A stretch of DNA of 64,000 nt, taken from assembly GCF_003100395.1 (NCBI RefSeq), contig NZ_CP029210.1, forward strand, positions 1,302,001-1,366,000. Reading direction: 5' to 3'. The notes beneath the pieces were generated by a model. The model did no database searches. It was not told the DNA's origin and was given only the letters and a program-made list of their open reading frames with translations. This document shows, piece after piece, positions 5,038-64,000 of the stretch. This stretch comes from Aquabacterium olei (lineage in GTDB: Bacteria > Pseudomonadota > Gammaproteobacteria > Burkholderiales > Burkholderiaceae_C). Each line of letters opens with the position of its first letter. Position 1 is the first letter of the stretch. The position numbers were made by a program, and so were the translations under genes.

Positions 5038-5867
5038 GGTCGGAATCTCCAGGCAGCCAGACCGAGTGGCGCGGCAATCCAGGCGAGCATGGCGCCGCCC
5101 AGCAGCCAGGGATTGGCGAGGGCGGGCGGCACGATGCTGGTCAGCCCGTAGAGGGTGCGCATGTCGTCCAGCGAGAACACATTGAGGATGCGGAAGAGGT
5201 CGGCCGGGTTGCACAGCAGCAGCCAGGGCAGGGGCTCGCCACCCAGCCGGCCAGCACTGGCCACCAGCACACCGAGGAGCAACAAGTCGAACACCAGCAC
5301 GAGGGCGAACCACAGCATGATGGCGAGCCCCGAGGCGCGGGCGCGGTCGTGTGCCAGCACCGAGATCAGCACCGCCAGGCTCAGAAAGGTCAGGCCGAGC
5401 ATCCAGGCGCTGGCCACGAAGCCGGCGTAGTGGTAGAGGCCCGCCCACCCGAACTGGCGCCACAGCAGCCCGCCCACGAGCGTGAAGCCCGCCAGGGTGG
5501 ACAGCGTGAGCGCCATCGCGAGGCCGAGGTACTTGCCGAGCAGCAGCTCCTGCCGCGTGATGGGCAGCGACAGCAGCAGATCCAGTGAGCCCCGCTCGCG
5601 TTCGCCCACGATGGCGTCGAAGCCGAGCAACAGCGCGATCAGCGGCACCAGGTAGATGACCAGGCTGACGAGGCTGGCAATCGTGAGCTCGATGGAGGTG
5701 GGGCCGACCTGGCCCTGCGCGGCAGCGCCGAAGTAGGTGATGAGCAGCGAGGCCACCGTGAAGACGAGGGCGACGACCATGACCCAGCGGTTGCGCAGGC
5801 GGTCGCTGAACTCTTTGCGTGCCAGCGCGCGAATCTGGCGCCATTCGAGTAGACAGGTGGCACTCAT
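5034..5867 (-). CDS. nosY: ABC transporter permease NosY
   Basis: This inner-membrane permease of 277 residues has about six hydrophobic helices and the ABC-2 type motif GERERGSLDLLLSLPITRQELLLGK after the second or third helix. It pairs with the NosF ATPase and periplasmic NosD to mature the copper-sulfide centre of N2O reductase, moving or activating a sulfur or copper species. It starts 4 bases inside the nosF end (ATGA) and stops 4 bases inside nosL, so stoichiometric co-translation is expected. Length and motif position match NosY. Confidence 0.93.
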   Translation of the reverse strand: MSATCLLEWRQIRALARKEFSDRLRNRWVMVVALVFTVASLLITYFGAAAQGQVGPTSIELTIASLVSLVIYLVPLIALLLGFDAIVGERERGSLDLLLSLPITRQELLLGKYLGLAMALTLSTLAGFTLVGGLLWRQFGWAGLYHYAGFVASAWMLGLTFLSLAVLISVLAHDRARASGLAIMLWFALVLVFDLLLLGVLVASAGRLGGEPLPWLLLCNPADLFRILNVFSLDDMRTLYGLTSIVPPALANPWLLGGAMLAWIAAPLGLAAWRFRP

Positions 5868-6790
5868 GCGGCCCTCCGGAGACCGAAGAAGAGGTCTTCG
5901 AGCGAGGGTTCATGAATCTGCACATCGTCCACGCCGGTGCCGCTCGCCATGAGCACCTGCAGGACGCGCAGCTTCAGCGCGCGGGCGCAGGTCACCTTGA
6001 AGCCCTCGGCCTGCAGAGCGACTGCGGTCGGCTGCAGGGCGGCAAGCCGCTCGATCAGTGCCGTGGCGGCGCCGGGGGCAGCCCGCACGTCGATCGTGAG
6101 CGGCAGGCTGCTCTGCTCACGCAAGGCGGCCACGCTGCCGCACGCCAGCACGCGGCCGCTCGCCATGATGGCGAGTCGGTCTACACGGGCCTCCAGCTCG
6201 GCCAGGATGTGCGAGGTGATCACCATGGTGACGCCACGTCCGCGCAGGACATCGAGCTGCGCGTAGAAGTCACGTGTGGCGGCGGGATCGAGCCCCGTCG
6301 TGGGTTCGTCAAGAAACAGCAGGTGGGGCTCGCCGAGCAAGGCCTGCGCAAAGCCGAGGCGCTGGCGCATGCCTTTGGAGTAGCCGCGTATGGGTCGCAA
6401 AGCGGCGTCCTTCAGGCCCACCTGCTCAAGCAGTGGCTGGCACGAGGTCAACGGTGCGCCCTTCAGTCGCGCGAAGAAGTGCAGGGTTTCCAACCCGTTG
6501 AGGTTGTCGTAGAGCACGAGGTTCTCGGGCAGGTAGCCGATGCGACGGCGGGCATGGCGGAATGCGGAGCCATGCACCGGGCTGCCCGCCACGCGCAGTT
6601 CGCCGGAGGTGGGCGCGATGAGCCCGAGCATCAACTTGAACAGCGTGCTCTTGCCTGCACCGTTGTGCCCGATCAGGCCGAAGAGTTCGCCGCGTCGCAC
6701 ATCGAGGTCGACGCCGTCGACGGCATGGACCGCGCCATAGTGCTTGCGCACCTGCCGCAGGGTGATGGGGTCAGGGTCGGGAGGGGTCAA
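5864..6790 (-). CDS. nosF: ABC transporter ATPase NosF
   Basis: This is the ATPase partner of NosY. All ABC motifs are present: Walker A GHNGAGKST, a Q-loop region, signature YSKGMRQRLGFAQALL, Walker B LLFLDEPTTGLDP and an H-loop in MVITSHILAELE. The frame is open to a GTG at 6856, but I prefer the TTG at 6790. It has GGAG 8 nt upstream, overlaps nosD by only 20 nt and gives the usual family length (308 aa). The C-terminal part after residue 220 is a NosF-type regulatory extension ending LEDLFFGLRRAA. Confidence 0.92.
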   Translation of the reverse strand: MTPPDPDPITLRQVRKHYGAVHAVDGVDLDVRRGELFGLIGHNGAGKSTLFKLMLGLIAPTSGELRVAGSPVHGSAFRHARRRIGYLPENLVLYDNLNGLETLHFFARLKGAPLTSCQPLLEQVGLKDAALRPIRGYSKGMRQRLGFAQALLGEPHLLFLDEPTTGLDPAATRDFYAQLDVLRGRGVTMVITSHILAELEARVDRLAIMASGRVLACGSVAALREQSSLPLTIDVRAAPGAATALIERLAALQPTAVALQAEGFKVTCARALKLRVLQVLMASGTGVDDVQIHEPSLEDLFFGLRRAA

Positions 6791-8060
6791 GCCAGTGGCT
6801 CCATTCGGTATGGTGGGGACGCAGGCGAGGGCTGGGGTCGACCACGCTGGGTGCACGCAGCACAGGGAACTGCTGGCTCAGCAGGCGCAAGGCCTGCACG
6901 GCCGGACTGCCGAGCAGGAGCTTCATCGTGGGATAGCGCCATTGCAGGCGGTCGACCAGGTCATTGGCCTCGTAGGGCACGTCGCCCAGGCCGTTGCCAT
7001 CGCGGTCCCAGCCCAGGTAGTTGCTCCAGTGGTTGCCCAGCTCACCGGGCTGTCCCGGGGCAGGGCCCCATCGCTCATCGCGTGAGCCCAGGTAGCGGAC
7101 TTGCTCGCCGTTGGCGATGAAGTCGTTGCCCTGCACCACGTTGCGGGTCGAGCCGGCGGCCAGGTGCACGCCCGTTCGGTTGCCGATGACGAGGTTGCCG
7201 CGAAGCGTGGCGTACTCGACGTCGTAGATGAAGAGGCCGCGCTCGTTGTCGGCCACCACGTTGCCCTCGATCAAGGAGTCCTGCAGCGTGCGCAGCATGA
7301 TGCCGTGGTCCGCGTTGGCCCAGGTGCGGTTGCCTCGCACAACCTGATCTCGCACCTCCATCAAGGCCAGGCCACCGCGGTTGCGGTAGCTGTCATTGCC
7401 CTCCCAGAGGTTGTGGTACGAGTTCATGTAGTGGCTGCCGTAGCGGCTGTGGTGCAGCTTGTTGCCCTTGAACTCGGCGCGATGCGACACATCGATGTAC
7501 AGCGCATCGCGCACGAAGCTGATCTGGTTGTTCAGGATGCGGGCGCCCGTGGTGTTGTAGAGCTGAATGCCGTTGCCCCGCTGAGCGGAGTTCAGCTCGC
7601 GGAGGCCGGTGATGACGTTGCCTTCGATGCGCACGTCGTTGGCCTTCTCGATCCACAGGCCGAAGAGGTTGTAGGTCAGATCACACCCGCGCACCACGGC
7701 GCGGTGTGCGCCGGGCTGAAGGTAGATGCCCGCATGCTGGTGTTTCAGACTGTGGCCGGAGTCGCGCACGATCAGGCCTTCGATCAGGACATCGGGGGCC
7801 GTGACCCGGATGGTGTCCGCCTCGAATCCCCCGCTCAGCGTGGGTCGTTGCAGGCCTCGCAGGGTCAGGGGCCGGTCCACGCGCACCGGCCCGCTGTAGC
7901 GGCCTTTTTCGATCTCCAGCACGTCACCAGGGCGCGCGCGGTCGATGGCGGCCTGGATCGATTCGCCAGCATGCACGCGCACAGTGGCGGCATGAGCGGC
8001 CATGGTGCCGAGCGACAGCAGCCCAGTCAGCACGACGGTCAGAGCGTGGCGATGCAGCAC
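6771..8060 (-). CDS. nosD: Periplasmic copper-site maturation protein NosD
   Basis: This 429-residue exported protein has a cleavable signal peptide ending AAHA. Repeated right-handed beta-helix rungs follow (many RGN/EGN turns such as VIEGNVVADN and LRGNLVIGNRTG), typical of NosD. NosD takes part with NosFY in assembling CuZ on NosZ. The C-terminal NHWSNYLGWDRDGNGLGD segment is the conserved NosD tail. The gene starts only 4 nt after the nosR stop, in the same operon. Confidence 0.94.
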   Translation of the reverse strand: MLHRHALTVVLTGLLSLGTMAAHAATVRVHAGESIQAAIDRARPGDVLEIEKGRYSGPVRVDRPLTLRGLQRPTLSGGFEADTIRVTAPDVLIEGLIVRDSGHSLKHQHAGIYLQPGAHRAVVRGCDLTYNLFGLWIEKANDVRIEGNVITGLRELNSAQRGNGIQLYNTTGARILNNQISFVRDALYIDVSHRAEFKGNKLHHSRYGSHYMNSYHNLWEGNDSYRNRGGLALMEVRDQVVRGNRTWANADHGIMLRTLQDSLIEGNVVADNERGLFIYDVEYATLRGNLVIGNRTGVHLAAGSTRNVVQGNDFIANGEQVRYLGSRDERWGPAPGQPGELGNHWSNYLGWDRDGNGLGDVPYEANDLVDRLQWRYPTMKLLLGSPAVQALRLLSQQFPVLRAPSVVDPSPRLRPHHTEWSHWLDPSRP

Positions 8061-8064
8061 GGCC

Positions 8065-10698
8065 TTACCCCAGCCAGCCCATCGCCTTGAGGACCAGGAA
8101 CAGCGTGGCCCCGACCAGCAGGTTCTTGAAGCCGACGTAGCTCAGCATGTCCATCCAGGAGGCATGTCGGTAGTTCGCCTGCCACCACGGGCCGTCCTTG
8201 ACGTAGCGGCGGCCTCCCATGCGGATCAGCACTTCGTACACACTCCAGCCGAACCACCAGCCGATCAGCGCGCCGGACGACAGGCGCCCGGTGGCAGCGA
8301 GCAACCACGCCACGCTGGCCACGATGGCCAGCGAGAGCCCCGCGATCTGCAGTGCGCGGTGGTGGCGCCAGCCGTCCCGGCTCCAGGGCCACAGGTGGTC
8401 TCGTACTTCCAGCATGGCCCAGCGCAGGCCCCGTGTGCCGGTGGCGTACGGAGGTGTGACAGCGTCGGTGGGCCAGCGCGGATCCGGCCCCTGCGCCACC
8501 TTGTCGCTCATGCGCACTGGCTCGGCCGCGATGGGGATGAAGTAGCCGTTTTCGCCGATCGGGGTGATCAGCAGGCGATCGCGTTCACGGCGCTTGCGCT
8601 CCTTCGACAGCGGCGGGCAGCCGTGCTGGTCGGTGTAGAGCACCATGCAATCCAGACAATGCAGGCATTCGCGATGGTCGATGCGGCCCTTATCGTCGAT
8701 GGCCAGCGAGCCGCAGCCCACCGCACATGCCTTGCAGCTGTTGCAGTCCTGCTTGCGGCGCAGGCCGAACCACCGGAAGGTGCTGGGCATGGCCAGGGCG
8801 GCGCCCAGCGGGCAGATGTACTTGCAATAGGGCCGTTCGATGAACAGCGACACACCCAGCAGCACGCACACGAACAAGCCATAAGGCCAGGCGCGGTTGT
8901 GGATGCCGACCAGGAACGTCGTCTTGAAGGGCTCGACCTCGGCCAGCATCTCGGCCAGGCCCATGGAGAACATCGACACCGTCAGCAGGCCAAAGAAGAC
9001 TGCGTACTTGAGCCACTTGAGTCGGTCGTGTACCGGGCGTGGCAGGTGGCCTTGCCAGCGCTGGAGTCCCACCTTGCTGCCGATCTTGTAGAGCGCCTCC
9101 GACAGCGATCCGAAGGGGCACATCCAGCCACAGAACAGCCCGCGTCCGAACAGGAACACGGTCAGGATGATGAAGATCCAGAACACGAAGATGAACGGAT
9201 CCGACAGGAACAGGGACCACGTCCACTGGAACAGCACCGAGTGGAACCACGTGAGCACCTGCGTGATGCTGGGCTGTGCCATGACACCGAAGCCCACGAA
9301 CACGATGCTCAGGGCCCATGCGCTGTACTTGAATGCGTTGACGGGCCACTTGTTCTTGTGGGTGGACAGGCGCGTGAGCCGTTCACGCATCGCGTACACG
9401 ATGGTCACCGCCACCAGCAGCGCCACGAAGAGTCCGATGGACACGGCCCGGGTGCGCCACACGCGCTGCCACGGTGCCTCGTCTTCCGTCACTTCGGGGC
9501 GGCCGCCTTCGAGCATCTCGGCCGGCAGCCAGTAGCGGGCATCGAAGCTGGCGAAGCTGCGCGCGCCGGTGGCGCGGTCCACGCGGTTGCCCATGAAGCT
9601 CAGCTTCCAGGGGTAGGCGGCCGAGAAGCCCTTGGCCCGAACGATGAAGATGGCCGATTCGTTGTAGTCGGGGGCGCCCTGGGCGCTCAGGCCGTACAGG
9701 TTGAGGTAGTCCAGGTCACGGAACGTGTAGGCGTCGTGCCCCTGCTTGATCTGGACACGGTCATAGATACCGCCGCGCACAAAGCCCGAACCCTTGAAGG
9801 ATTCTTCACCGCCGGTGCGGATGACGAAGAAGGCGCGTTCCCCTTCCTTCAGTTGCCCGTGCAGGCTGGCCCAGCCATCCTGACCCAGCAGGCTTGCGCC
9901 CAGATCGGGCTGGTTCAGATCGCCAAACCAGAGTTCGATGAAAGGCTCGCTGCCACGCGCCAGACCGACCTGTTCAGGCTTGACCAGCAGGCGCTGCACC
10001 GCGCCCATCTTGACCAGCTCAGGCCAGGACCAGCGTTGGCCCGTGGTGTGAAAGCGTGCGGCGGGGCGCACATCGGGTGCCAGGATGCCCACCTGCCGCG
10101 CGACTGCCGCGCCAGACAAGCGCATCACCTGGTTCTGGGCGATGACGGTGACGGTGGCCCCCGAGATGGCGTCGACGCCCAGCACGCCTTCATCAGGCCG
10201 CGAGGGGCCGACTTCGATCTTGTCCTTGACGGACTTGCCAAGGTACTGGTTGTTGAACTTGATCAGCGCCGACTCAGGGATGCCCAGCAGCAGGATGGGC
10301 TCCGAGTGCTTGAGCACCTTGACCCCCACATACCGGCCCTGCATGTCCATGCCGATCAGTGTGACCACCGGCTTGCCGGAATAGGCCGGCGTGTCCGTGA
10401 TGTCGGTGGAGAGCATCACGTAACCCAGCAACGGCTTCTTGCCGGCCACGGCCTCACCATAGGCCTGCACATAGGGCGGCTGTCCCGTGCGCTCGGAAAA
10501 GCTCTTCGCGCCGGGGAACACGTCATGGCATGGCACGTGCGCGCACAGGTCGCGCACGGTGCCCAGATCGTCCGGCAGGGCTGCCTCATAAGCACCCGTT
10601 GCAGCCTGCGCAACAGACACCAGGGACAGAAGGGCCAGTGCAGCCAGCGTGCGCAGCACCAGGCGAGCCCAGCAGGAACGAACTGTGTGAAACATCAT
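8065..10698 (-). CDS. nosR: N2O reduction regulator and electron donor NosR
   Basis: This 877-residue polytopic flavo-iron-sulfur protein is needed for nos expression and electron delivery to NosZ. An N-terminal signal helix is followed by a periplasmic FMN-binding domain with DAISGATVT, where Thr182 is the expected covalent flavin site for ApbE/NosX. Next come membrane helices and NapH-like motifs CGWMCPFG and CKYICPLG, then a two-cluster ferredoxin block (CNSCKACAVGCG and CLHCLDC). The protein is longer than commonly described NosR (about 700-780 aa) owing to a C-terminal region of roughly 170 residues with further helices. The start overlaps the nosZ stop (ATGA); ATG 10695 is an alternative start. 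Confidence 0.95.
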   Translation of the reverse strand: MMFHTVRSCWARLVLRTLAALALLSLVSVAQAATGAYEAALPDDLGTVRDLCAHVPCHDVFPGAKSFSERTGQPPYVQAYGEAVAGKKPLLGYVMLSTDITDTPAYSGKPVVTLIGMDMQGRYVGVKVLKHSEPILLLGIPESALIKFNNQYLGKSVKDKIEVGPSRPDEGVLGVDAISGATVTVIAQNQVMRLSGAAVARQVGILAPDVRPAARFHTTGQRWSWPELVKMGAVQRLLVKPEQVGLARGSEPFIELWFGDLNQPDLGASLLGQDGWASLHGQLKEGERAFFVIRTGGEESFKGSGFVRGGIYDRVQIKQGHDAYTFRDLDYLNLYGLSAQGAPDYNESAIFIVRAKGFSAAYPWKLSFMGNRVDRATGARSFASFDARYWLPAEMLEGGRPEVTEDEAPWQRVWRTRAVSIGLFVALLVAVTIVYAMRERLTRLSTHKNKWPVNAFKYSAWALSIVFVGFGVMAQPSITQVLTWFHSVLFQWTWSLFLSDPFIFVFWIFIILTVFLFGRGLFCGWMCPFGSLSEALYKIGSKVGLQRWQGHLPRPVHDRLKWLKYAVFFGLLTVSMFSMGLAEMLAEVEPFKTTFLVGIHNRAWPYGLFVCVLLGVSLFIERPYCKYICPLGAALAMPSTFRWFGLRRKQDCNSCKACAVGCGSLAIDDKGRIDHRECLHCLDCMVLYTDQHGCPPLSKERKRRERDRLLITPIGENGYFIPIAAEPVRMSDKVAQGPDPRWPTDAVTPPYATGTRGLRWAMLEVRDHLWPWSRDGWRHHRALQIAGLSLAIVASVAWLLAATGRLSSGALIGWWFGWSVYEVLIRMGGRRYVKDGPWWQANYRHASWMDMLSYVGFKNLLVGATLFLVLKAMGWLG

Positions 10699-52257: not shown

Positions 52258-54264
52258 ATGTCAGTCAAGCCGTCTTCCAAAGCGTCCACCCAGCCCAGCG
52301 CCACCTACGGCGAGGGCTCCATCCGCGTCCTCAAGGGCCTGGAGCCCGTCAAGCAGCGGCCGGGCATGTACACCCGCACGGACAACCCGCTGCACGTCAT
52401 CCAGGAAGTGATCGACAACGCGGCCGACGAGGCGCTGGCGGGCTTTGGCAAGCGCATCGCCGTCACGCTGCACACCGATGGTTCGATCAGCGTGGAAGAC
52501 GACGGCCGGGGCATCCCCTTCGGCCTGCATCCGGAGGAGGGCGTGGCGGTCGTCGAAATCGTGTTCACCCGCCTGCATGCGGGGGGCAAGTTCGACAAGG
52601 GGTCGGGCGGGGCCTACAGCTTCTCGGGCGGCCTGCACGGCGTGGGCGTGAGCGTGACCAACGCGCTGGCCACGCGCCTGCAGGTGACGGTGTGCCGCGA
52701 CAAGCAGGTGGCCACGCTGGCCTTCAGCGGCGGCGACGTGATCGAGCCGGTGGCCGTGCGCCCGGCCGCCAGTGGCGACCGCAAGAACGGCACCACGGTG
52801 CGCGTGTGGCCGGACGCGAAGTACTTCGAAAGCGCCGAACTGCCGCGTGGCGAGCTGGTGCACATGCTGCGCAGCAAGGCCGTGCTGATGCCGGGCGTGA
52901 CCATCACGCTCACCATCGAGAAGGCCGGCAAGGACGCCGAGGTGCAGACCTGGCTCTACAAGGGCGGCCTGCGCGACTACCTGACCCAGACGCTGACGAC
53001 CGATCCGGTCATCCCGCTGTTCGAGGGCGAGCAGTACGCCAGCGGCAGCGAGACCGAGAACTTCGCCGAAGGCGAGGGCGCGGCCTGGTGCGTGGCCTTC
53101 ACCGAAGAAGGCGCGCCCATGCGCGAAAGCTACGTCAACCTGATCCCGACCGTCGCCGGCGGCACGCACGAGGCGGGGCTGAAGGACGGCCTGTTCAACG
53201 CGGTGAAGGGTTTCATCGAGATGCATTCGCTGATGCCCAAGGGTGTGAAGCTGATGCCCGACGACGTGTTCAGCCGCGCCAGCTTCGTGCTGAGCGCCAA
53301 GGTGCTGGACCCGCAGTTCCAGGGGCAGACGAAGGAGCGCCTGAACAGCCGCGATGCACTGCGCCTGGTGACCACCTACGTGAAGCCCGCCATGGAGCTG
53401 TGGCTCAACCAGCACGTGGAGTACGGCCGCAAGCTGGCCGAACTGGTGATCAAGCAGGCGCAGGCGCGCCAGCGGGCCGGCCAGAAAGTCGAGAAGAAGA
53501 AGAGCTCCGGCGTGGCCGTGCTGCCGGGCAAGCTGACCGACTGCGAAAGCCGCGACATCGCGTTCAACGAGGTGTTCCTCGTCGAGGGCGACTCGGCCGG
53601 TGGCAGCGCCAAGATGGGCCGCGACAAGGAGACGCAGGCCATCCTCCCGCTGCGCGGCAAGGTGCTCAACGCCTGGGAAGTCGAGCGCGACCGCCTGTTC
53701 GCCAACAACGAGATCCACGACATTTCGGTGGCCATCGGGGTCGACCCGCACGGGCCGAACGACGAGGTCGACCTGTCAGGGCTGCGCTACGGCAAGATCT
53801 GCATCCTGTCGGACGCCGACGTGGACGGCTCTCACATTCAGGTGCTGCTGCTCACGTTGTTCTTCCGTCACTTCCCGAAGCTGATCGAGACGGGCCACAT
53901 CTACATTGCTCGCCCGCCGCTGTTCCGGGTGGATGCGCCGGCGCGCGGCAAGAAGCCGGCGGCCAAGCTGTATGCGCTGGACGAGGGCGAGCTCACCGCC
54001 ATCCTCGACAAGCTGCGCAAGGAAGGCTGCCGCGAAGGCGCCTGGAGCATCAGCCGCTTCAAGGGCCTGGGCGAGATGAACGCCGAACAGCTGTGGGACA
54101 CCACGCTGAACCCGGACACCCGCCGCCTGCTGCCGGTGGCCTACGGCGAGCCTGGCTTCTGTGACACCGAAGGGGCGTTCAACCGCCTGATGGGCAAGGG
54201 TGAGGCCGCGTCGCGCCGTGAGCTGATGGAGCTGCACGGCGACGCGGTCGACGTCGACATCTGA
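52258..54264 (+). CDS. parE: DNA topoisomerase IV subunit B ParE
   Basis: This 668-residue ATPase subunit of topoisomerase IV separates replicated chromosomes with ParC. It shows the GHKL ATP site (EVIDNAADEALAG, EDDGRGIPFG, SGGLHGVGVSVTNAL) and TOPRIM metal motifs (EGDSAGGSAK and DADVDGSHI), with a typical C-terminal end. It is closer to ParE than GyrB, as the longer GyrB insert is absent. The partner parC lies 8 kb downstream on the same strand. Confidence 0.95.
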   Translation: MSVKPSSKASTQPSATYGEGSIRVLKGLEPVKQRPGMYTRTDNPLHVIQEVIDNAADEALAGFGKRIAVTLHTDGSISVEDDGRGIPFGLHPEEGVAVVEIVFTRLHAGGKFDKGSGGAYSFSGGLHGVGVSVTNALATRLQVTVCRDKQVATLAFSGGDVIEPVAVRPAASGDRKNGTTVRVWPDAKYFESAELPRGELVHMLRSKAVLMPGVTITLTIEKAGKDAEVQTWLYKGGLRDYLTQTLTTDPVIPLFEGEQYASGSETENFAEGEGAAWCVAFTEEGAPMRESYVNLIPTVAGGTHEAGLKDGLFNAVKGFIEMHSLMPKGVKLMPDDVFSRASFVLSAKVLDPQFQGQTKERLNSRDALRLVTTYVKPAMELWLNQHVEYGRKLAELVIKQAQARQRAGQKVEKKKSSGVAVLPGKLTDCESRDIAFNEVFLVEGDSAGGSAKMGRDKETQAILPLRGKVLNAWEVERDRLFANNEIHDISVAIGVDPHGPNDEVDLSGLRYGKICILSDADVDGSHIQVLLLTLFFRHFPKLIETGHIYIARPPLFRVDAPARGKKPAAKLYALDEGELTAILDKLRKEGCREGAWSISRFKGLGEMNAEQLWDTTLNPDTRRLLPVAYGEPGFCDTEGAFNRLMGKGEAASRRELMELHGDAVDVDI

Positions 54265-56631: not shown

Positions 56632-57486
56632 TCAGGCGAGGGGCGCAGGGAAGGTAGGGGGCGGATCGGCGGCGTCGGGCTCTTCGGCGTGCCGGACACC
56701 CCCCGGGCCCCAGCTCACATCACCGCACACCACGCGCCACCCCGATTCGGCCTCGCCATGCGGTTGGGCCTGCTGGAAGGCGTAGGAGACGGTGACCGTC
56801 ATGCCCTTGCCGCCCAGAGTTCGGTAGGGGCGGGTCACCTGTACGCGTCCCGGTGACTGGAGCGCACGCTTGAAGTACGGCCGGCGCGCCCAGCAGGCGC
56901 CGTCCGCCTGCGCCAGCGGACTGAAGGCCGGCCCCTGTGCGGTGCGCTGGTCTTCCACCCACAGGTTCGGCCCCACCTGGAAGCCGGATTCGTCCAGCAC
57001 GAAGCAGACCAGTGCACCGGGCAGCGCCAGGAACGAGCGCGCGGCTTCGTCCAGCGAGCGCCCCGCGCTCAGCAGCACGCCCGCATAGCCGATGGCGTTC
57101 TGGAAGGGGGCGAGCAGGTTCTTCTGGCGCTGCCGCTGGGCGGCGCGGAAGCGGGCCAGCTCGCCATGCAGCGCCACGATGTCGTCGTGGCGCGCGCGGC
57201 GATCGAGTTCAGGATGCGGGCGCGCAAAGTAGAAGCCTTGCACCAGATCGACATCCGACTCCAGCGCGAGCAGCGCCTCGCGCGCCGTCTCGATGCCCTC
57301 CATGAGCACCAGGGCCTCGGCCTCGTGCAGCACGGATACCGTCTGCGTGATGACACGCAGGCGCGCCGGGTCTTCGGCCAGGGCGGTGACCAGGCTGCGG
57401 TCGAGCTTGACGATGTCCGGCCGGATGCGCCAGACGCGGTCGAAGTCGGAGTGGCCGGCGCCGAAATCGTCCAGCGCGATCAGCAT
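56632..57486 (-). CDS. N-terminally truncated EAL-domain protein (likely non-functional)
   Basis: The 284 residues begin in the middle of an EAL phosphodiesterase domain at MLIALDDFGAGHSDF. DDFG, the VKLDRSL lysine region, GIET and VQGFYFARP remain. The front half of the barrel, with the EAL motif and first metal ligands, is missing. A C-terminal sensory-like domain (about 120-260) follows. The same frame stays open upstream with recognisable EAL sequence (HAVEALRDRG) up to the end of the photolyase gene at 57551, but no start codon occurs there. It cannot hydrolyse c-di-GMP as it stands and may be a decaying remnant. Confidence 0.75.
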   Translation of the reverse strand: MLIALDDFGAGHSDFDRVWRIRPDIVKLDRSLVTALAEDPARLRVITQTVSVLHEAEALVLMEGIETAREALLALESDVDLVQGFYFARPHPELDRRARHDDIVALHGELARFRAAQRQRQKNLLAPFQNAIGYAGVLLSAGRSLDEAARSFLALPGALVCFVLDESGFQVGPNLWVEDQRTAQGPAFSPLAQADGACWARRPYFKRALQSPGRVQVTRPYRTLGGKGMTVTVSYAFQQAQPHGEAESGWRVVCGDVSWGPGGVRHAEEPDAADPPPTFPAPLA

Positions 57487-57550: not shown

Positions 57551-59089
57551 TCAGAGCGTGTCGATGTCTGCCAGCCACCGTGTGGCCTGGGCCTGGGTGG
57601 CGGTGCGCTCGTCGGGTGTCATGCGGTCGATCTGCTTGTAGACCATGCCGATGCGAGGGTTGCGACGCAAGGTCTGTTCATGCCGCAGGTGGAAATCCCA
57701 GTAGAGCGCGTTGAAGGGGCAGGCGTTTTCGCCCAGTCGGGCCTTGCGGTCGTAGGGGCAGCCGGCGCAATGGTCGCCCATGCGGTGCAGGTAGGCGGCG
57801 CTCGACACGTAAGGCTTGGTGGCCAGCTGGCCGCCGTCTGCAAACTGGCTCATGCCCAGCGTGTTGGGCGCCTCCACCCACTCGAAGGCGTCGATGTAGA
57901 CGCCCAGATACCACCGATGCACCGCTTGTGGATCGAGCCCCGCCAGCAGCGCGAAATTGCCGATCACCATCAGACGCTGGATGTGGTGGGCGTAGGCCTC
58001 GCGCAGCGACTGGCCGATGGCCTGCTTCATGCACGCCATCCGCGTGTCGCCCGTCCAGAACCAGGCGGGCAGCGGGCGCGTGTGGCCCAGCTGGTTGCGC
58101 TCGGTGTAGCCCGGCATGTGGGCCCAGTACACGCCGCGCACGTACTCGCGCCAGCCGAGGATCTGCCGGATGAAGCCTTCCACCGCGGGCAGGGGCGCGT
58201 GGCCGGCTTGCCAGGCGGCCGTTGCCGCGCCCACCACCTCGCGCGGGTTCAGCATCTTGGTGTTGAGCGCGAACGACAGCAGCGAGTGAAACAGGCGCCA
58301 GCCGCGGTGCGTCAGCGCGTCCTGGAAGTCGCCGAAGTGGGGCAGGGCGTGCTGCACGAAGGCAGCCAGGTGCTGCAGGGCTTCTTCGCGGTTCAGCGGC
58401 CAGGCCAGCGTGCCGGCCTGCGGCTCACCGAAGTGGGCGACACCGGCCGCTTCGATGGTGGACCACAGCGCGCGATGGTCGTGCGGGGTGCGCCAGTCGG
58501 CAGGCTCGGCCGGGGTGCCGGGCCACGGCTTGCGGTTGTCGTGGTCGAAGTTCCACTGGCCGCCGGATGGCTTGCCATCGGCCTCCAGCAGCACGCCGTG
58601 GCGCAGGCGCATCTGCCGGTAGAAGTGCTCCATCAACCACTGCGTGCGGCCCTGGAAGATGGCCCGGGCCTCGTCGCGTGTGGTCAGGAAGTGCTCGCTG
58701 TCCACCATCTCGACCACGACGCCTTGCGCGCGTTGCCCCCGGGCCCAGGCCGCCAGCTCGGCGTCAAGCCGCCATTCATCGGGTGCCTGGTACGCGACGC
58801 GCAGGGCACCGTAATGGGCCACGAGGGCACTCAGGTTGCCCGTGATCGACTGGCGGTTGCTCGCATCGTCGATGGCGACGTAGCGCACGCGGTGGCCGGC
58901 TTCTTTCAAGCGGCGCGCCATGTCCCGCAGGCCGGCGAAGATCGCGAGGATTTTCTGCGCGTGGTGCTGCACGTAGTCGGTCTCGCTGCGTACCTCCATC
59001 AACACGTAGACGACATCCGGGTGCACCTCGGCCAACCAGCTGTGCTGCGGGTTGAGTTGGTCACCGAGGATGAGGCGCAGTGTGGTCAT
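57551..59089 (-). CDS. FeS-BCP photolyase (PhrB/CryB type)
   Basis: This 512-residue member of the iron-sulfur bacterial cryptochrome/photolyase group repairs (6-4) photoproducts in characterised relatives. The start MTTLRLILGDQLN is typical. Cluster cysteines at 353, 441, 444 and 457 (MACMK, CAGC, ACPFN) keep the exact spacing of Agrobacterium PhrB. FAD-binding motifs such as GWREYVRGVYWAHMPGY are present. ATG 59089 overlaps the CRY-DASH stop (ATGA); a GTG at 59101 is less likely. The stop abuts the truncated EAL gene. Confidence 0.93.
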   Translation of the reverse strand: MTTLRLILGDQLNPQHSWLAEVHPDVVYVLMEVRSETDYVQHHAQKILAIFAGLRDMARRLKEAGHRVRYVAIDDASNRQSITGNLSALVAHYGALRVAYQAPDEWRLDAELAAWARGQRAQGVVVEMVDSEHFLTTRDEARAIFQGRTQWLMEHFYRQMRLRHGVLLEADGKPSGGQWNFDHDNRKPWPGTPAEPADWRTPHDHRALWSTIEAAGVAHFGEPQAGTLAWPLNREEALQHLAAFVQHALPHFGDFQDALTHRGWRLFHSLLSFALNTKMLNPREVVGAATAAWQAGHAPLPAVEGFIRQILGWREYVRGVYWAHMPGYTERNQLGHTRPLPAWFWTGDTRMACMKQAIGQSLREAYAHHIQRLMVIGNFALLAGLDPQAVHRWYLGVYIDAFEWVEAPNTLGMSQFADGGQLATKPYVSSAAYLHRMGDHCAGCPYDRKARLGENACPFNALYWDFHLRHEQTLRRNPRIGMVYKQIDRMTPDERTATQAQATRWLADIDTL

Positions 59090-60477
59090 GCGGTGCCCCA
59101 CAGCCGGCGGTAGTGGCCTTGTGGGTCGTGGTCCTGCGCCTGCTTGTCGAGGTTGAAGCGGCGTCCGCCTCGCGGGTCGGTGCCGCGGCCGGCCACATAC
59201 AGCCAGTTCCCCTGGTTGCTGTAGACGTCGTGGTCGACGAGTTGGGATTCGAACCAGGCGGCCCCGGCACGCCAGTCACAGCGCAGGTCGTGCACCAGGT
59301 GGCTGGCCACCACCTGCCGCATGCGGTTGGACAGAAAGCCGCTGGCTGCCAGTTCCCGCATGCCGGCGTCCACCAGGGGCTGTCCGGTGCGGGCCTCGCA
59401 CCAGCGCTGGAAGGCCTGGGGGTCATGGGGCGGTGGGGACAGTTGAGTCAGGCCCCGGGCGCGATACAGCGCACGGCCGTGCTTGAGGTGCATCAGCCGG
59501 AAATGATCGCGCCACAGCAACTCGAACCACAGCCAGTAGCTGCCGTCGTTTGCGCCGTGTTCGGCCTCGAAGGCGCGCAGCGCCGCCATGATCTGCGGGG
59601 CCGACAGCGCGCCGCTCGCCAGCCAGGGAGAGAGCTTGCTCGAGTAGTCCACGCCGATCAGGCCATTGCGCGTGTGCTTGTAGCTGTGTGGCAGTTTGCG
59701 GCTCATGTACTGAGCCAGATGGTCCTGCGCGCCAGCCTCGCCAGGGGCGCAGGCGGGCAGGTGGTAGGGAAAGGCCGAACGTGCCTCCGGCATCAGCACG
59801 GGGGGCACAGGCCGTTTCAGCGGGGTGTGGCACAGCAAGGGCGGCCCGTGCGCGCCATCCTGAGTGAGCCGCGCAGCATGACCCTGTGCCGCAGCCATCG
59901 GCTCCCAGAGCGCATCGTGCGGGGGCAGGGCTGGCAGCCGGGCGGCGGCGGGCAGCGGCGCCCGGGGTTGCACGTCGGCGCGCTCCACTTGCTGCCGAAA
60001 GGCGGTGAACACGTCCGGGGTCCGCTCCACGGCAAAGGGCAGGTCGGGTGGATCCAGCAGGCTCGACTGCCACACCGGCGTCCAGCGCCATCCCTCCAGG
60101 CGGGCTGTGCGCGCCAGCGCGTCGGCCTCGTCCTGCTCCTCGGGCGCGGCAATGGCCTCGGCGCTCACCTGCACGGCCTGCACCGCCCGCACCAGCCGCG
60201 GCAGAAGGGACACGGCCGCGCCGTGCAACACCAGCAGGCGGCTGCCGCGTTGCTGCAGGGCGCTGTCGAGCGCAGTCAGCGTGTCGGCCAGCACGGCCAT
60301 GCGGTGCGGCCCCATGCGGCGTGGCACCCAGCGTGTGGGCTGCGCCTGGGCCGGATCCCAGATGTAGACCGGCAGCAGGGTGTGCCCGTGGGCCTGGGCG
60401 GCCCGCACCGCGCGGGTCAGGGCCGGGTTGTCAGCCAGACGCAGGTCGTGGCGGAACCAGTGGATCACCGTGCTCAT
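59086..60477 (-). CDS. CRY-DASH-type cryptochrome
   Basis: This 463-residue cryptochrome begins VIHWFRHDLRLADNPAL. The DASH-type body has SRKLPHSYKHTRNGLIGVDYSSKLSPWLA, LLWRDHFRLMHLKHG and LSNRMRQVVASHLVHDL, with the ending WFESQLVDHDVYSNQGNW. Relatives repair CPD lesions in single-stranded DNA or act as light sensors. ATG 60477 overlaps the DUF2256 stop (ATGA), and the stop overlaps the PhrB-type start the same way. The frame is open to 60597, but that part belongs to the preceding genes. Confidence 0.92.
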   Translation of the reverse strand: MSTVIHWFRHDLRLADNPALTRAVRAAQAHGHTLLPVYIWDPAQAQPTRWVPRRMGPHRMAVLADTLTALDSALQQRGSRLLVLHGAAVSLLPRLVRAVQAVQVSAEAIAAPEEQDEADALARTARLEGWRWTPVWQSSLLDPPDLPFAVERTPDVFTAFRQQVERADVQPRAPLPAAARLPALPPHDALWEPMAAAQGHAARLTQDGAHGPPLLCHTPLKRPVPPVLMPEARSAFPYHLPACAPGEAGAQDHLAQYMSRKLPHSYKHTRNGLIGVDYSSKLSPWLASGALSAPQIMAALRAFEAEHGANDGSYWLWFELLWRDHFRLMHLKHGRALYRARGLTQLSPPPHDPQAFQRWCEARTGQPLVDAGMRELAASGFLSNRMRQVVASHLVHDLRCDWRAGAAWFESQLVDHDVYSNQGNWLYVAGRGTDPRGGRRFNLDKQAQDHDPQGHYRRLWGTA

Positions 60478-60635
60478 GCGGCAGCCTTGCCCTGTGAGGG
60501 GCGCTGCTGTCGGCAGCGGTCGGAGCAGTACTTGACCTCGTCCCAGTCGCGCGCCCATTTGCGCCGCCAGGCGAAGGGCCGCTGGCAGGCCAGGCACAGC
60601 TTGGTGGGCAGATCGGCTTTCTTGCGCATGCGCAT
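60474..60635 (-). CDS. DUF2256 small zinc-ribbon-like protein
   Basis: This 53-residue basic protein fits DUF2256: KKADLPTKLCLACQRPFAWRRKW and VKYCSDRCR. Cysteines 14, 17, 37 and 41 form a probable zinc site. DUF2256 genes recur beside photolyase or cryptochrome genes in other bacteria (established association; function not established). It starts 1 nt after the photolyase stop and overlaps CRY-DASH by 4 nt, so it is translated in step with them. It may bind DNA or assist the photolyases; this is inference. Confidence 0.85.
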   Translation of the reverse strand: MRMRKKADLPTKLCLACQRPFAWRRKWARDWDEVKYCSDRCRQQRPSQGKAAA

Positions 60636-60636
60636 G

Positions 60637-62226
60637 TCAGAACTCCAGGGACAGCTGCGGATGGTCGGCCGCCGGCGTTGCGGGGCTGCGGCTGCGGCGC
60701 GGGCCCAGGCCGCGGCCATCGCGGTTCACGCGCGAGCCGTGCCGCTCGACGATCCCGGCCACGGCAGCCTTCACGTCGGGCCGCGCCCGCACGGCGTGCA
60801 CCTGGGCACGGGCGGTCCGCAAGGCCGTCTCCAGGTCCACCAGCGGCAGCGGGATGTCTGCAGCCGGGTCGCTGCCCACCCGCACACCACAGCGCTGCTG
60901 CACATCGGGCGGCATGCGCCACGGCTCGAACAGCCAGGTGTCGGGCACGCGGCGCAGGGCAGGCAGCCATCGGCGCACGAAGTGCCCTTGCGGGTCCTGG
61001 TCGCGCGCCTGCTTGATCGGGTTGTAGACCCGGGTGGTGTTGATGCCCGTGGTGCCTGCCTGCATCTGCATCTGGCTCCAGTGGATGCCGGGCTCGTAGT
61101 CGACGAACTGGCGCGCCAGCCACAGGCCCACGGGCCGCCAGTGCAGCCAGAGCGGATACGTGGCCACGGACACCAGCATGGCGCGCATGCGGAAGTTGAG
61201 CCAGCCGGTCTCGCGCAGCATCGTCACGCAGGCATCCACCAGCGGCCATCCGGTGCGGCCTGCCATCAGGGCCGCGAGGCGGGCCTCGTCGGCGGTTTCG
61301 TCGCGCAGGCCGTCGTAGCCGCGGTGCAGGTTGCGCCACTCCAGCTCGGGCTCGCTCTCCAGCTTCTGAATGAAGTGGCAGTGCCAGTGCAGGCGGCTCA
61401 GGAACGCGCTCAGGCCAGCGTGCTGCCTGGCCGCGTGCGGGTCAAGGGCGGCCTGCGCGTGAAGCACGTCCATGCGGGCTTCGGTGGCCTGCACCACCTC
61501 GCGCATCGACAGGCAGCCCCATGCGAGGTAGGGCGACAGACGCGAGCACGCGGTGGGGGCCGACAGCGGCGACGAGATGCCCCCGCGGTAGCGCCCGCAA
61601 CGGTCATGCAGGAACTCGTTCAACACCGCCATGCCTGCTTCGCGGCCGCCACGCTGGCGATGGCGCGGCAGCCCGTCGGTCAGGCCCAGCGCGGCGGAGG
61701 CGGGCAGCACAAGACCCGGCGCTGCGGCTCTGCCAACATCTTGCGTCATCGGTGCCCGCAGCGTCGGGCTGGCCATGAAGCGCTGCCAGTGCCGATGCCA
61801 CCCGTTCCGGTCGCGCAGGCGCCGCACGACCCCGGTCTGCGGTGTTTCGCCAAACACCACACCGTGCGCCGTGCACCACTGCGCCACCGCCACATCGCGC
61901 TGGTACGTCACCGCGTTGCCCGTTTCTTCGTGGGCCAGCAGCGCCTCGAACGGGGCTTCAAGCCACAGCGCGTCCAGTACGTCGACCACCTCACCCTGGC
62001 GCACCATCAGGCGGCAGCCGGCCCGGCTCAGCGCCTGTTCCAGTTCGATCAGGCTTTCGCGCACAAACGCCCACTGCCGCGCCGATGCATCGGGTTGCCG
62101 CCACAGCGAGGGCTCGATCACGTACAGGCAGCGCACCCCGGCTGCACCGTGGCGCGCCAGCGCTGCATGCAGCGGCGCGTGGTCGACCGTACGCAGGTCG
62201 CGCTTGAACCAGACGAGGGCAGACAT
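60637..62226 (-). CDS. Photolyase/cryptochrome family FAD-binding protein
   Basis: This 529-residue protein has an N-terminal photolyase domain starting ALVWFKRDLRTVDHAPL and a C-terminal FAD domain with SPYLAWGCLSMREVVQA, TGWPLVDACVTMLRETGWLNFRMRAML and INTTRVYNPIKQA. The NFRMRAML form differs from the class I CPD photolyase LHNRxRM box, so it belongs to a separate clade; CPD repair is likely but not certain. The C-terminal 60 residues are basic and low in complexity. It is the first gene of the four-gene operon; ATG 62226 lacks a clear Shine-Dalgarno. Confidence 0.88.
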   Translation of the reverse strand: MSALVWFKRDLRTVDHAPLHAALARHGAAGVRCLYVIEPSLWRQPDASARQWAFVRESLIELEQALSRAGCRLMVRQGEVVDVLDALWLEAPFEALLAHEETGNAVTYQRDVAVAQWCTAHGVVFGETPQTGVVRRLRDRNGWHRHWQRFMASPTLRAPMTQDVGRAAAPGLVLPASAALGLTDGLPRHRQRGGREAGMAVLNEFLHDRCGRYRGGISSPLSAPTACSRLSPYLAWGCLSMREVVQATEARMDVLHAQAALDPHAARQHAGLSAFLSRLHWHCHFIQKLESEPELEWRNLHRGYDGLRDETADEARLAALMAGRTGWPLVDACVTMLRETGWLNFRMRAMLVSVATYPLWLHWRPVGLWLARQFVDYEPGIHWSQMQMQAGTTGINTTRVYNPIKQARDQDPQGHFVRRWLPALRRVPDTWLFEPWRMPPDVQQRCGVRVGSDPAADIPLPLVDLETALRTARAQVHAVRARPDVKAAVAGIVERHGSRVNRDGRGLGPRRSRSPATPAADHPQLSLEF

Positions 62227-62388
62227 CCGATGAGCGTAGCGAGGCTGCGGCGCTCTGCCGCGAGACTGAGTCCGGCAATCCGATGCAAACCCGCGTCAAA
62301 GGGAGGCCCGCCCGCCGCCGGCGAGAGGCCGCCGTGCCACTACACTTCCTTCCGCCCGGACAGCCCGGGCCCGCATTGACCGACCACG

Positions 62389-64000
<1,612 letters not shown>

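What the first reader, a model, noticed from the sequence alone, without database searches (positions are those of the whole stretch)
57551..62226. Coupled operon of three distinct photolyase/cryptochrome classes plus DUF2256
Four minus-strand genes are joined by a 1-nt gap and two ATGA overlaps. They encode a divergent photolyase, a small CxxC/CxxxC DUF2256 protein, a CRY-DASH protein and an FeS-BCP (PhrB-type) photolyase with all four cluster cysteines. Having three different light-driven classes translationally coupled to one small zinc-ribbon-like protein suggests a combined repair or light-sensing module in which DUF2256 could be a shared partner. The overlaps and motifs are seen directly; the module idea is inference.
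Basis: partly seen in the sequence, partly recalled or inferred. Interest (0 to 1): 0.72.

Follow-up and report, generated by a model that had tools for sequence, protein, structure and literature searches.

The report
Photolyase operon with small zinc-type protein
A bacterial operon encodes three light-using DNA-repair-type proteins and a tiny protein of unknown function, and in the genomes surveyed that tiny protein usually accompanies one of the three, the iron-sulfur (6-4) photolyase, which gives an orphan protein family a likely job.

Summary
Four minus-strand genes (57551-62226) are joined by a 1-nt gap and two ATGA overlaps: an unclassified photolyase-family protein (A), DUF2256 (53 aa), CRY-DASH and an FeS-BCP (6-4) photolyase with its cluster cysteines.

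New here: DUF2256 follows FeS-BCP rather than all three classes equally. In 249 Pseudomonadota genomes: both 59, FeS-BCP only 10, DUF2256 only 9, neither 171 (p 1e-36; family-stratified p 1e-9). In 198 Bacteroidota: 57, 7, 7, 127. In 25 of 59 and 32 of 57 of the genomes with both, the genes were not found within 5 kb (some lie on separate contigs). Without FeS-BCP, A genomes have DUF2256 in 0 of 3 and CRY-DASH genomes in 1 of 3. CRY-DASH is optional even in this genus.

Protein A is its own clade, with Arg and Phe (36 of 36) where class I-type and DASH rows have Glu and Asn.

Best reading: DUF2256 is an in-vivo accessory of (6-4) photorepair; the mechanism is inferred. Two held papers name DUF2256; the passages seen do not link it to photolyases.

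The parts
60637..62226 (-). gene A: uncharacterised cryptochrome/photolyase-family clade (529 aa)
   Evidence: PF00875 82 bits and PF03441 197 bits, no NCBIfam model over cut-off; own side of a branch against DASH and class I-type rows, 36 rows, SH-aLRT 100 in a quick tree that warns of long branches; AlphaFold model pLDDT 89, Foldseek hits to several CPF classes at 20-25% identity
60636..60636 (-). 1-nt gap between stop of A and ATG of DUF2256
   Evidence: sequence
60474..60635 (-). DUF2256 gene (53 aa, CxxC...CxxxC, predicted pI 10.4)
   Evidence: PF10013 81.2 bits; invariant C15, C18, C38, C42, W24, R25, W28, W32 in 31 aligned sequences; pI
60474..60477 (-). ATGA stop/start overlap DUF2256 / CRY-DASH
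   Evidence: sequence
59086..60477 (-). CRY-DASH gene (463 aa)
   Evidence: TIGR02765 434.5 bits against cut-off 317
59086..59089 (-). ATGA stop/start overlap CRY-DASH / FeS-BCP
   Evidence: sequence
57551..59089 (-). FeS-BCP prokaryotic (6-4) photolyase gene (512 aa)
   Evidence: PF04244 246.5 bits; PDB 7ykn/8a1h 528 bits, 4dja PhrB 465 bits; cluster Cys and PhrB active-site residues present
62227..62388 (.). intergenic region between the operon start and divergent parC (ATG at 62389); no sigma-70-like site found by consensus scan

Best explanation
The locus is a light-dependent DNA-repair cassette. Its core is an FeS-BCP (6-4) photolyase with DUF2256 as its accessory protein; CRY-DASH (by homology a single-strand CPD photolyase) and protein A are further family members in the same operon. 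DUF2256 is a very basic protein of about 45-55 aa with a CxxC...CxxxC motif, predicted as a small knuckle, and three invariant tryptophans. Most likely it acts in the cell by docking onto DNA or onto the photolyase, helping (6-4) lesions to be found or presented, and it can also serve other family members (A, NewPHL). It is probably not needed to insert the Fe-S cluster or for basic catalysis. Shown here: gene anatomy, residue conservation, adjacency, and co-occurrence with FeS-BCP in two phyla, also where the genes are not close. Inferred: zinc binding, physical contact, and the docking role.
For: Co-occurrence in 249 Pseudomonadota genomes: 59 both, 10 FeS-BCP only, 9 DUF2256 only, 171 neither (Fisher p 1e-36). 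Stratified among the 146 genomes with PF03441 or PF04244, for which group codes were listed: CMH by family p 1.1e-9 (11 informative families), by genus p 1.3e-3 (8 genera). Replicated in 198 Bacteroidota: 57, 7, 7, 127, p 1e-33; leaving out two partial DUF2256 hits gives 57, 7, 5, 129. Of the 80 named loci the 19 outside Pseudomonadota (by record title) come from genomes of which 17 carry FeS-BCP. Within 5 kb in 34 of 59 and 25 of 57; of the rest 16 and 9 are further apart on one contig and 9 and 23 on different contigs. Specificity: PF03441 genomes with none of FeS-BCP, A, DASH or NewPHL carry DUF2256 in 7 of 71; FeS-BCP without A, DASH or NewPHL 26 of 34. Where no family gene is close, 59 neighbour proteins show no cross-lineage theme. 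Against a maturation role: PhrB was made in E. coli, carries the cluster and repaired (6-4) lesions in vitro (passages of PMC3204975 and PMC4619345), and E. coli is not among the control genomes that rang for DUF2256.
Confidence: 0.6

Rival explanations
1. DUF2256 is an equal, shared partner of all photolyase-family classes (the first reader's module), binding each of them or the DNA they act on.
For: Found within 1 kb of FeS-BCP (18), A (21), DASH (7) and NewPHL (4) among 80 loci; NewPHL genomes have it in 13 of 13, and A genomes that also have FeS-BCP in 21 of 21 against 38 of 48 FeS-BCP genomes without A, p 0.026.
Against: A without FeS-BCP 0 of 3 and DASH without FeS-BCP 1 of 3 have DUF2256 (small numbers); in a logistic fit the coefficients are FeS-BCP 3.5, NewPHL 3.4, any PF03441 2.3, A 1.0, DASH 0.7.
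Confidence: 0.3
2. DUF2256 is a maturation or stability factor for the FeS-BCP [4Fe-4S] cluster or its cofactors.
For: Follows the cluster-bearing class; four invariant cysteines could carry metal; in PhrB the cluster is needed for soluble protein (PMC4619345, abstract and passages). Genomes whose one PF04244 homolog lacks the cluster cysteines have DUF2256 in 3 of 6 against 67 of 81 for the other rows (p 0.09), but this set holds all 7 DUF2256-less Bacteroidota and only 11 of the 57 with both, so it is skewed.
Against: PhrB carries its cluster when made in E. coli, which did not ring for DUF2256. Of the 17 FeS-BCP proteins from DUF2256-less genomes 13 keep all four cysteines (3 lack them, 1 is a short sequence with one). 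DUF2256 also sits beside A, DASH and NewPHL genes, where no such cluster is known.
Confidence: 0.15
3. DUF2256 only shares a light or stress regulon with photolyases and does something else, for instance modulate a topoisomerase as its TRASH-clan relative YacG does with gyrase.
For: Top Foldseek hits are YacG chains of 4tma, not significant; TRASH clan membership is stated in PMC4047054 (passage); the operon lies between parE and divergent parC here; MerR/B12-type, SDR and FAD-oxidoreductase genes of the kind named in a Pseudomonas light regulon (PMC9758184 passages) recur near DUF2256.
Against: parC/parE-like genes lie near DUF2256 in 12 of 157 loci, and 9 of these 12 are this genus or near kin, eight of them fetched for this very comparison. 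Co-occurrence is with one photolyase class and much less with class I-type enzymes, which that regulon also contains.
Confidence: 0.2
4. Ordinary operon; DUF2256 is a hitch-hiking neighbour with no functional tie.
For: Absence is scattered and tolerated.
Against: Co-occurrence holds also where the genes are not close, and in two phyla.
Confidence: 0.04

Closest known systems
FeS-BCP / PhrB-type prokaryotic (6-4) photolyase (Agrobacterium PhrB, Rhodobacter CryB)
   Same: P0004 aligns end to end (PDB 4dja 465 bits, 3zxs 458 bits, 7ykn/8a1h 528 bits) and keeps the cluster cysteines and W342, H366, L370, W390, Y424, Y430 equivalents.
   Different: Coupled to three other genes; no accessory protein came up in the passages seen of the papers looked at (two DUF2256 papers; PhrB and CryB papers; COG4338 in none).
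CRY-DASH (single-strand CPD photolyases such as those of Vibrio cholerae, PMC5241685 passage)
   Same: TIGR02765 over the cut-off; PDB 1np7 295 bits; Glu and Asn kept (22 of 22 DASH rows).
   Different: Optional member of this operon, in 4 of 8 relatives.
Class I CPD photolyase / other CPF classes (for protein A)
   Same: Same fold and domain order.
   Different: Arg for Glu274, Phe for Asn341, Glu for Asp372, Met for Trp384 (each 36 of 36), Ala (27) or Ser (9) for Met345 (E. coli numbering recalled). The class I-type rows are those most like the fourth family gene of this genome (PRK10674 406 bits, itself under the 506 cut-off; A has 141).
NewPHL (inverted-domain ssDNA CPD photolyases, introduction passage of PMC13274461)
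   Same: Fourth CPF kind found beside DUF2256 (L074, L086, L101, L110; L028); L028 has only the FAD domain in Pfam.
   Different: Not in this window. Assignment rests on this description, not on alignment to a named member.
UV-B-inducible two-photolyase operon of Synechococcus PCC 7335 (PMC9649867 passages)
   Same: Two photolyase-family genes in one operon with stop and start together.
   Different: Other classes (class II-like and another PHR); the word DUF2256 is not in that paper.
YacG / TRASH-clan zinc knuckles
   Same: Small cysteine-motif proteins; YacG chains are the top, non-significant, Foldseek hits.
   Different: DUF2256 has its own Pfam family and three invariant Trp, and follows FeS-BCP; no gyrase link was tested.

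Membership tests
FeS-BCP (P0004) | PF04244 N-terminal domain and full-length similarity to PhrB/CryB | tested here: met
FeS-BCP (P0004) | four Fe-S cysteines | tested here: met
   C353, C441, C444, C457; kept in 80 of 87 aligned rows, window included
FeS-BCP (P0004) | His366 and Tyr424 equivalents needed for (6-4) repair | tested here: met
   H369, Y427; residue roles from PMC4619345 passages
FeS-BCP (P0004) | (6-4) photoproduct repair activity | not testable with these tools
   needs biochemistry
CRY-DASH (P0003) | TIGR02765 over curated cut-off | tested here: met
   434.5 bits against 317
CRY-DASH (P0003) | ssDNA CPD repair | not testable with these tools
   needs biochemistry
Class I CPD photolyase (P0001) | NCBIfam class I model over cut-off | tested here: inconclusive
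   PRK10674 141 bits against 506, but the genome's own class I-type gene also stays under the cut-off with 406
Class I CPD photolyase (P0001) | Glu274 / Asn341 pair (recalled as lesion contacts) | tested here: not met
   Arg and Phe in 36 of 36 A rows; Glu and Asn in 7 of 7 class I-type and 22 of 22 DASH rows
DUF2256 (P0002) | PF10013 over gathering score, full length | tested here: met
   81.2 bits against 25, profile 1-40 of 40
TRASH / YacG-like zinc knuckle (P0002) | shared fold with YacG or FCS fingers | tested here: inconclusive
TRASH / YacG-like zinc knuckle (P0002) | zinc binding | not testable with these tools
   four invariant Cys are compatible
FeS-BCP accessory protein (proposed for DUF2256) | co-occurrence beyond linkage and beyond class I-type photolyase | tested here: met
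FeS-BCP accessory protein (proposed for DUF2256) | physical or genetic interaction | not testable with these tools
   needs pull-down and mutants

The most novel reading that the evidence does not exclude
DUF2256 is the missing protein subunit of (6-4) photorepair in living cells: a tiny zinc-type DNA/lesion adaptor that hands lesions to FeS-BCP and, in some lineages, to NewPHL and to clade A, a photolyase-family clade with a swapped active-site signature (Arg/Phe for Glu/Asn) that acts on a different lesion or as a sensor.
Probability: 0.3. Interest if true: 0.82.

Novelty: new variant of a known kind. Interest (0 to 1): 0.62.

Why it matters
Photolyases are usually treated as single-protein enzymes (general knowledge). 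A dedicated accessory protein for the prokaryotic (6-4) class would change how light repair in bacteria is studied, would give a function to DUF2256, named in PMC11796252 among the domains of high frequency in proteins of up to 50 aa (passage), and makes a direct knockout test possible. Clade A is a well-populated photolyase-family group with no solved structure closer than 20-25% identity in the Foldseek list seen and a changed catalytic signature.
Full report
Observation. The window region 57551-62226 carries four minus-strand genes exactly as described. A (529 aa) is followed after one base by DUF2256 (53 aa), which overlaps CRY-DASH by ATGA, which overlaps FeS-BCP by ATGA. Pfam and NCBIfam confirm DUF2256 (PF10013), CRY-DASH (TIGR02765 over its cut-off) and FeS-BCP (PF04244); A has PF00875 and PF03441 but no NCBIfam model over its cut-off. 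P0004 matches eight PDB sequences of the PhrB/CryB type at 354-528 bits and keeps the four cluster cysteines and the PhrB residues W342, H366, L370, W390, Y424 and Y430 (their roles from passages of PMC4619345). A further PF03441 gene lies at 2.87 Mb in the same genome; it scores 406 bits with the class I model PRK10674 (cut-off 506) and served as the class I-type reference.

The operon in relatives. Among 61 genomes (the window's own and 60 relatives) 28 have a DUF2256 match, 27 over the family cut-off. In 27 loci with up to 1.5 kb flanks (L004-L030, the window's own included; two weak partial matches left out), 25 have a photolyase-family gene beside it. In 14-kb stretches of ten genus relatives picked by me among those with DUF2256, eight have parC, divergent from A and DUF2256, with FeS-BCP on the same stretch; CRY-DASH is present in four of these eight. 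The remaining two carry a more distant FeS-BCP (44% identity) with DUF2256 and show no parC. The core of the operon in this genus is therefore A-DUF2256-FeS-BCP, and CRY-DASH is optional.

Which class does DUF2256 follow? The same 249 Pseudomonadota genomes (drawn evenly over the phylum) were searched for DUF2256 (68 genomes), PF04244 (69), PF03441 (145), an A profile (24 at 445 bits or more), TIGR02765 (23 over cut-off) and a NewPHL-type profile (13 at 250 bits or more). DUF2256 with FeS-BCP: 59 both, 10 FeS-BCP only, 9 DUF2256 only, 171 neither. With A 21/3/47/178, DASH 19/4/49/177, NewPHL 13/0/55/181 (both / class only / DUF2256 only / neither). Where FeS-BCP is absent, A has DUF2256 in 0 of 3, DASH in 1 of 3, NewPHL in 1 of 1. 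FeS-BCP without the other three classes has it in 26 of 34; PF03441 genomes with none of the four in 7 of 71. Stratified by family among the 146 genomes with PF03441 or PF04244, the FeS-BCP association remains (CMH p 1.1e-9), and is weaker for A (3e-3), NewPHL (6e-3) and DASH (1.5e-2); stratified by genus, FeS-BCP p 1.3e-3. None of the 68 DUF2256 genomes lacks both PF04244 and PF03441.

Replication. In 198 genomes drawn from the phylum of Runella (Bacteroidota), DUF2256 is in 64 and PF04244 in 64, both in 57, FeS-BCP only 7, DUF2256 only 7, neither 127; two DUF2256 hits are partial, and without them the table is 57, 7, 5, 129. Of the 80 named loci, 19 lie outside Pseudomonadota by their titles; 17 of these 19 genomes have PF04244. 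The two genes are within 5 kb in 34 of 59 (Pseudomonadota) and 25 of 57 (Bacteroidota, all 25 on the same strand). Of the others 16 and 9 are further apart on one contig, 9 and 23 on different contigs, some of which could be assembly breaks. So a good part of the co-occurrence is between genes that are not close.

Adjacency. With class profiles, a photolyase-family gene lies within 1 kb of DUF2256 in 35 of 67 fetched regions (plus the window itself) and in 40 of 80 named loci; the nearest one is on the same strand in 32 of 35 and 38 of 40. By class within 1 kb: 27 FeS-BCP, 8 A, 4 DASH in the 67 regions; 18 FeS-BCP, 21 A, 7 DASH, 4 NewPHL in the 80 named loci, which are the best-scoring 80 of 568. 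Where no such gene is near, 59 immediate same-strand neighbours were scanned and show lineage-bound genes such as leucyl aminopeptidase (9) and 3-dehydroquinate synthase (5).

Absences. Seventeen FeS-BCP genomes (10 + 7) lack DUF2256 also on a second search with another profile, 0 of 17. On a tree of 87 FeS-BCP proteins (all 69 Pseudomonadota, 18 of 64 Bacteroidota) the label needs 16 changes, as many as in shuffles (mean 15.8), so loss is repeated and not tied to an FeS-BCP subtype. Six of the 18 Bacteroidota homologs lack the cluster cysteines but keep H366, L370, Y424 and Y430 equivalents; three of their six genomes have DUF2256.

Protein A. In a quick tree with CRY-DASH and class I-type rows, the 36 A rows are one side of a branch with full SH-aLRT support; the program warns that the A and DASH branches are long. 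At the places of class I Glu274, Asn341, Asp372 and Trp384 (E. coli numbering recalled) A has Arg, Phe, Glu and Met in 36 of 36, while 22 of 22 DASH and 7 of 7 class I-type rows have Glu and Asn at the first two. Its model (pLDDT 89) matches class I, class III, animal, plant and DASH structures alike at 20-25% identity in the 50 rows listed. A close family is plentiful: the protein search scored 7999 candidates below E 0.001 (capped; they may include other classes), and the 120 listed are 61% or more identical.

Mechanism. The simplest reading that fits is an accessory role in (6-4) photorepair. A maturation role is less likely, because PhrB made in E. coli carries its cluster and repairs (6-4) lesions in vitro (passages), while E. 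coli, one of the named control genomes, is not among those that rang for DUF2256. A docking or lesion-presenting role fits a tiny basic protein with invariant Trp and Cys, dispensable but widely kept, and placed also beside other family members (A, NewPHL). This last step is inference. The regulation rival remains open: MerR/B12-type regulators, SDR and FAD-oxidoreductase genes of the kind named in the Pseudomonas LitR regulon (PMC9758184 passages) recur near DUF2256.

Verdict. Observation confirmed; module idea partly supported and redirected: DUF2256 belongs first to FeS-BCP. The operon is a new variant of known photolyase operons; a DUF2256 to FeS-BCP link was not found in the held literature with the searches (listings, plus passages where named).

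Noticed in passing
L251, L256, L257, L264, L265, L266 (Bacteroidota): PF04244 homologs that lack the Fe-S cysteines yet keep PhrB His366, Leu370, Tyr424 and Tyr430 equivalents in 6 of 6: natural cluster-free relatives of a class whose cluster is reported as needed for solubility.
   Followed up: partly
window 56632-57486 (-): EAL protein directly downstream of the operon matches only PF00563 positions 149-236, its first start codon after the upstream stop is at 57486; it looks N-terminally short, and the same stretch is 82% alike in relative L211.
   Followed up: partly
window 52258-54264 and 62389 on: The operon lies between parE and divergent parC, kept beside parC in 8 of 10 genus relatives; a parC-like gene is also near DUF2256 in L107, L166 and L195.
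   Followed up: partly
L079 (Tistrella mobilis), near 10001: DUF2256 appears fused in frame to a further stretch of about 250 residues.
   Followed up: no
L018, L020, L022, L030, L087, L170, L205: MerR-type genes of one similarity cluster near DUF2256; the L018 member has a B12-binding domain and resembles CarH/LitR light regulators, under the cut-off.
   Followed up: partly
L274 (Thioclava plasmid) 5180-5800; L275 (Cupriavidus plasmid) 6711-7634: Other DNA-damage genes: an SOS-response-associated peptidase beside DUF2256, and excinuclease Cho after FeS-BCP.
   Followed up: no
L028, L074, L086, L101, L110: Photolyase-family genes of the NewPHL-like kind next to DUF2256.
   Followed up: partly
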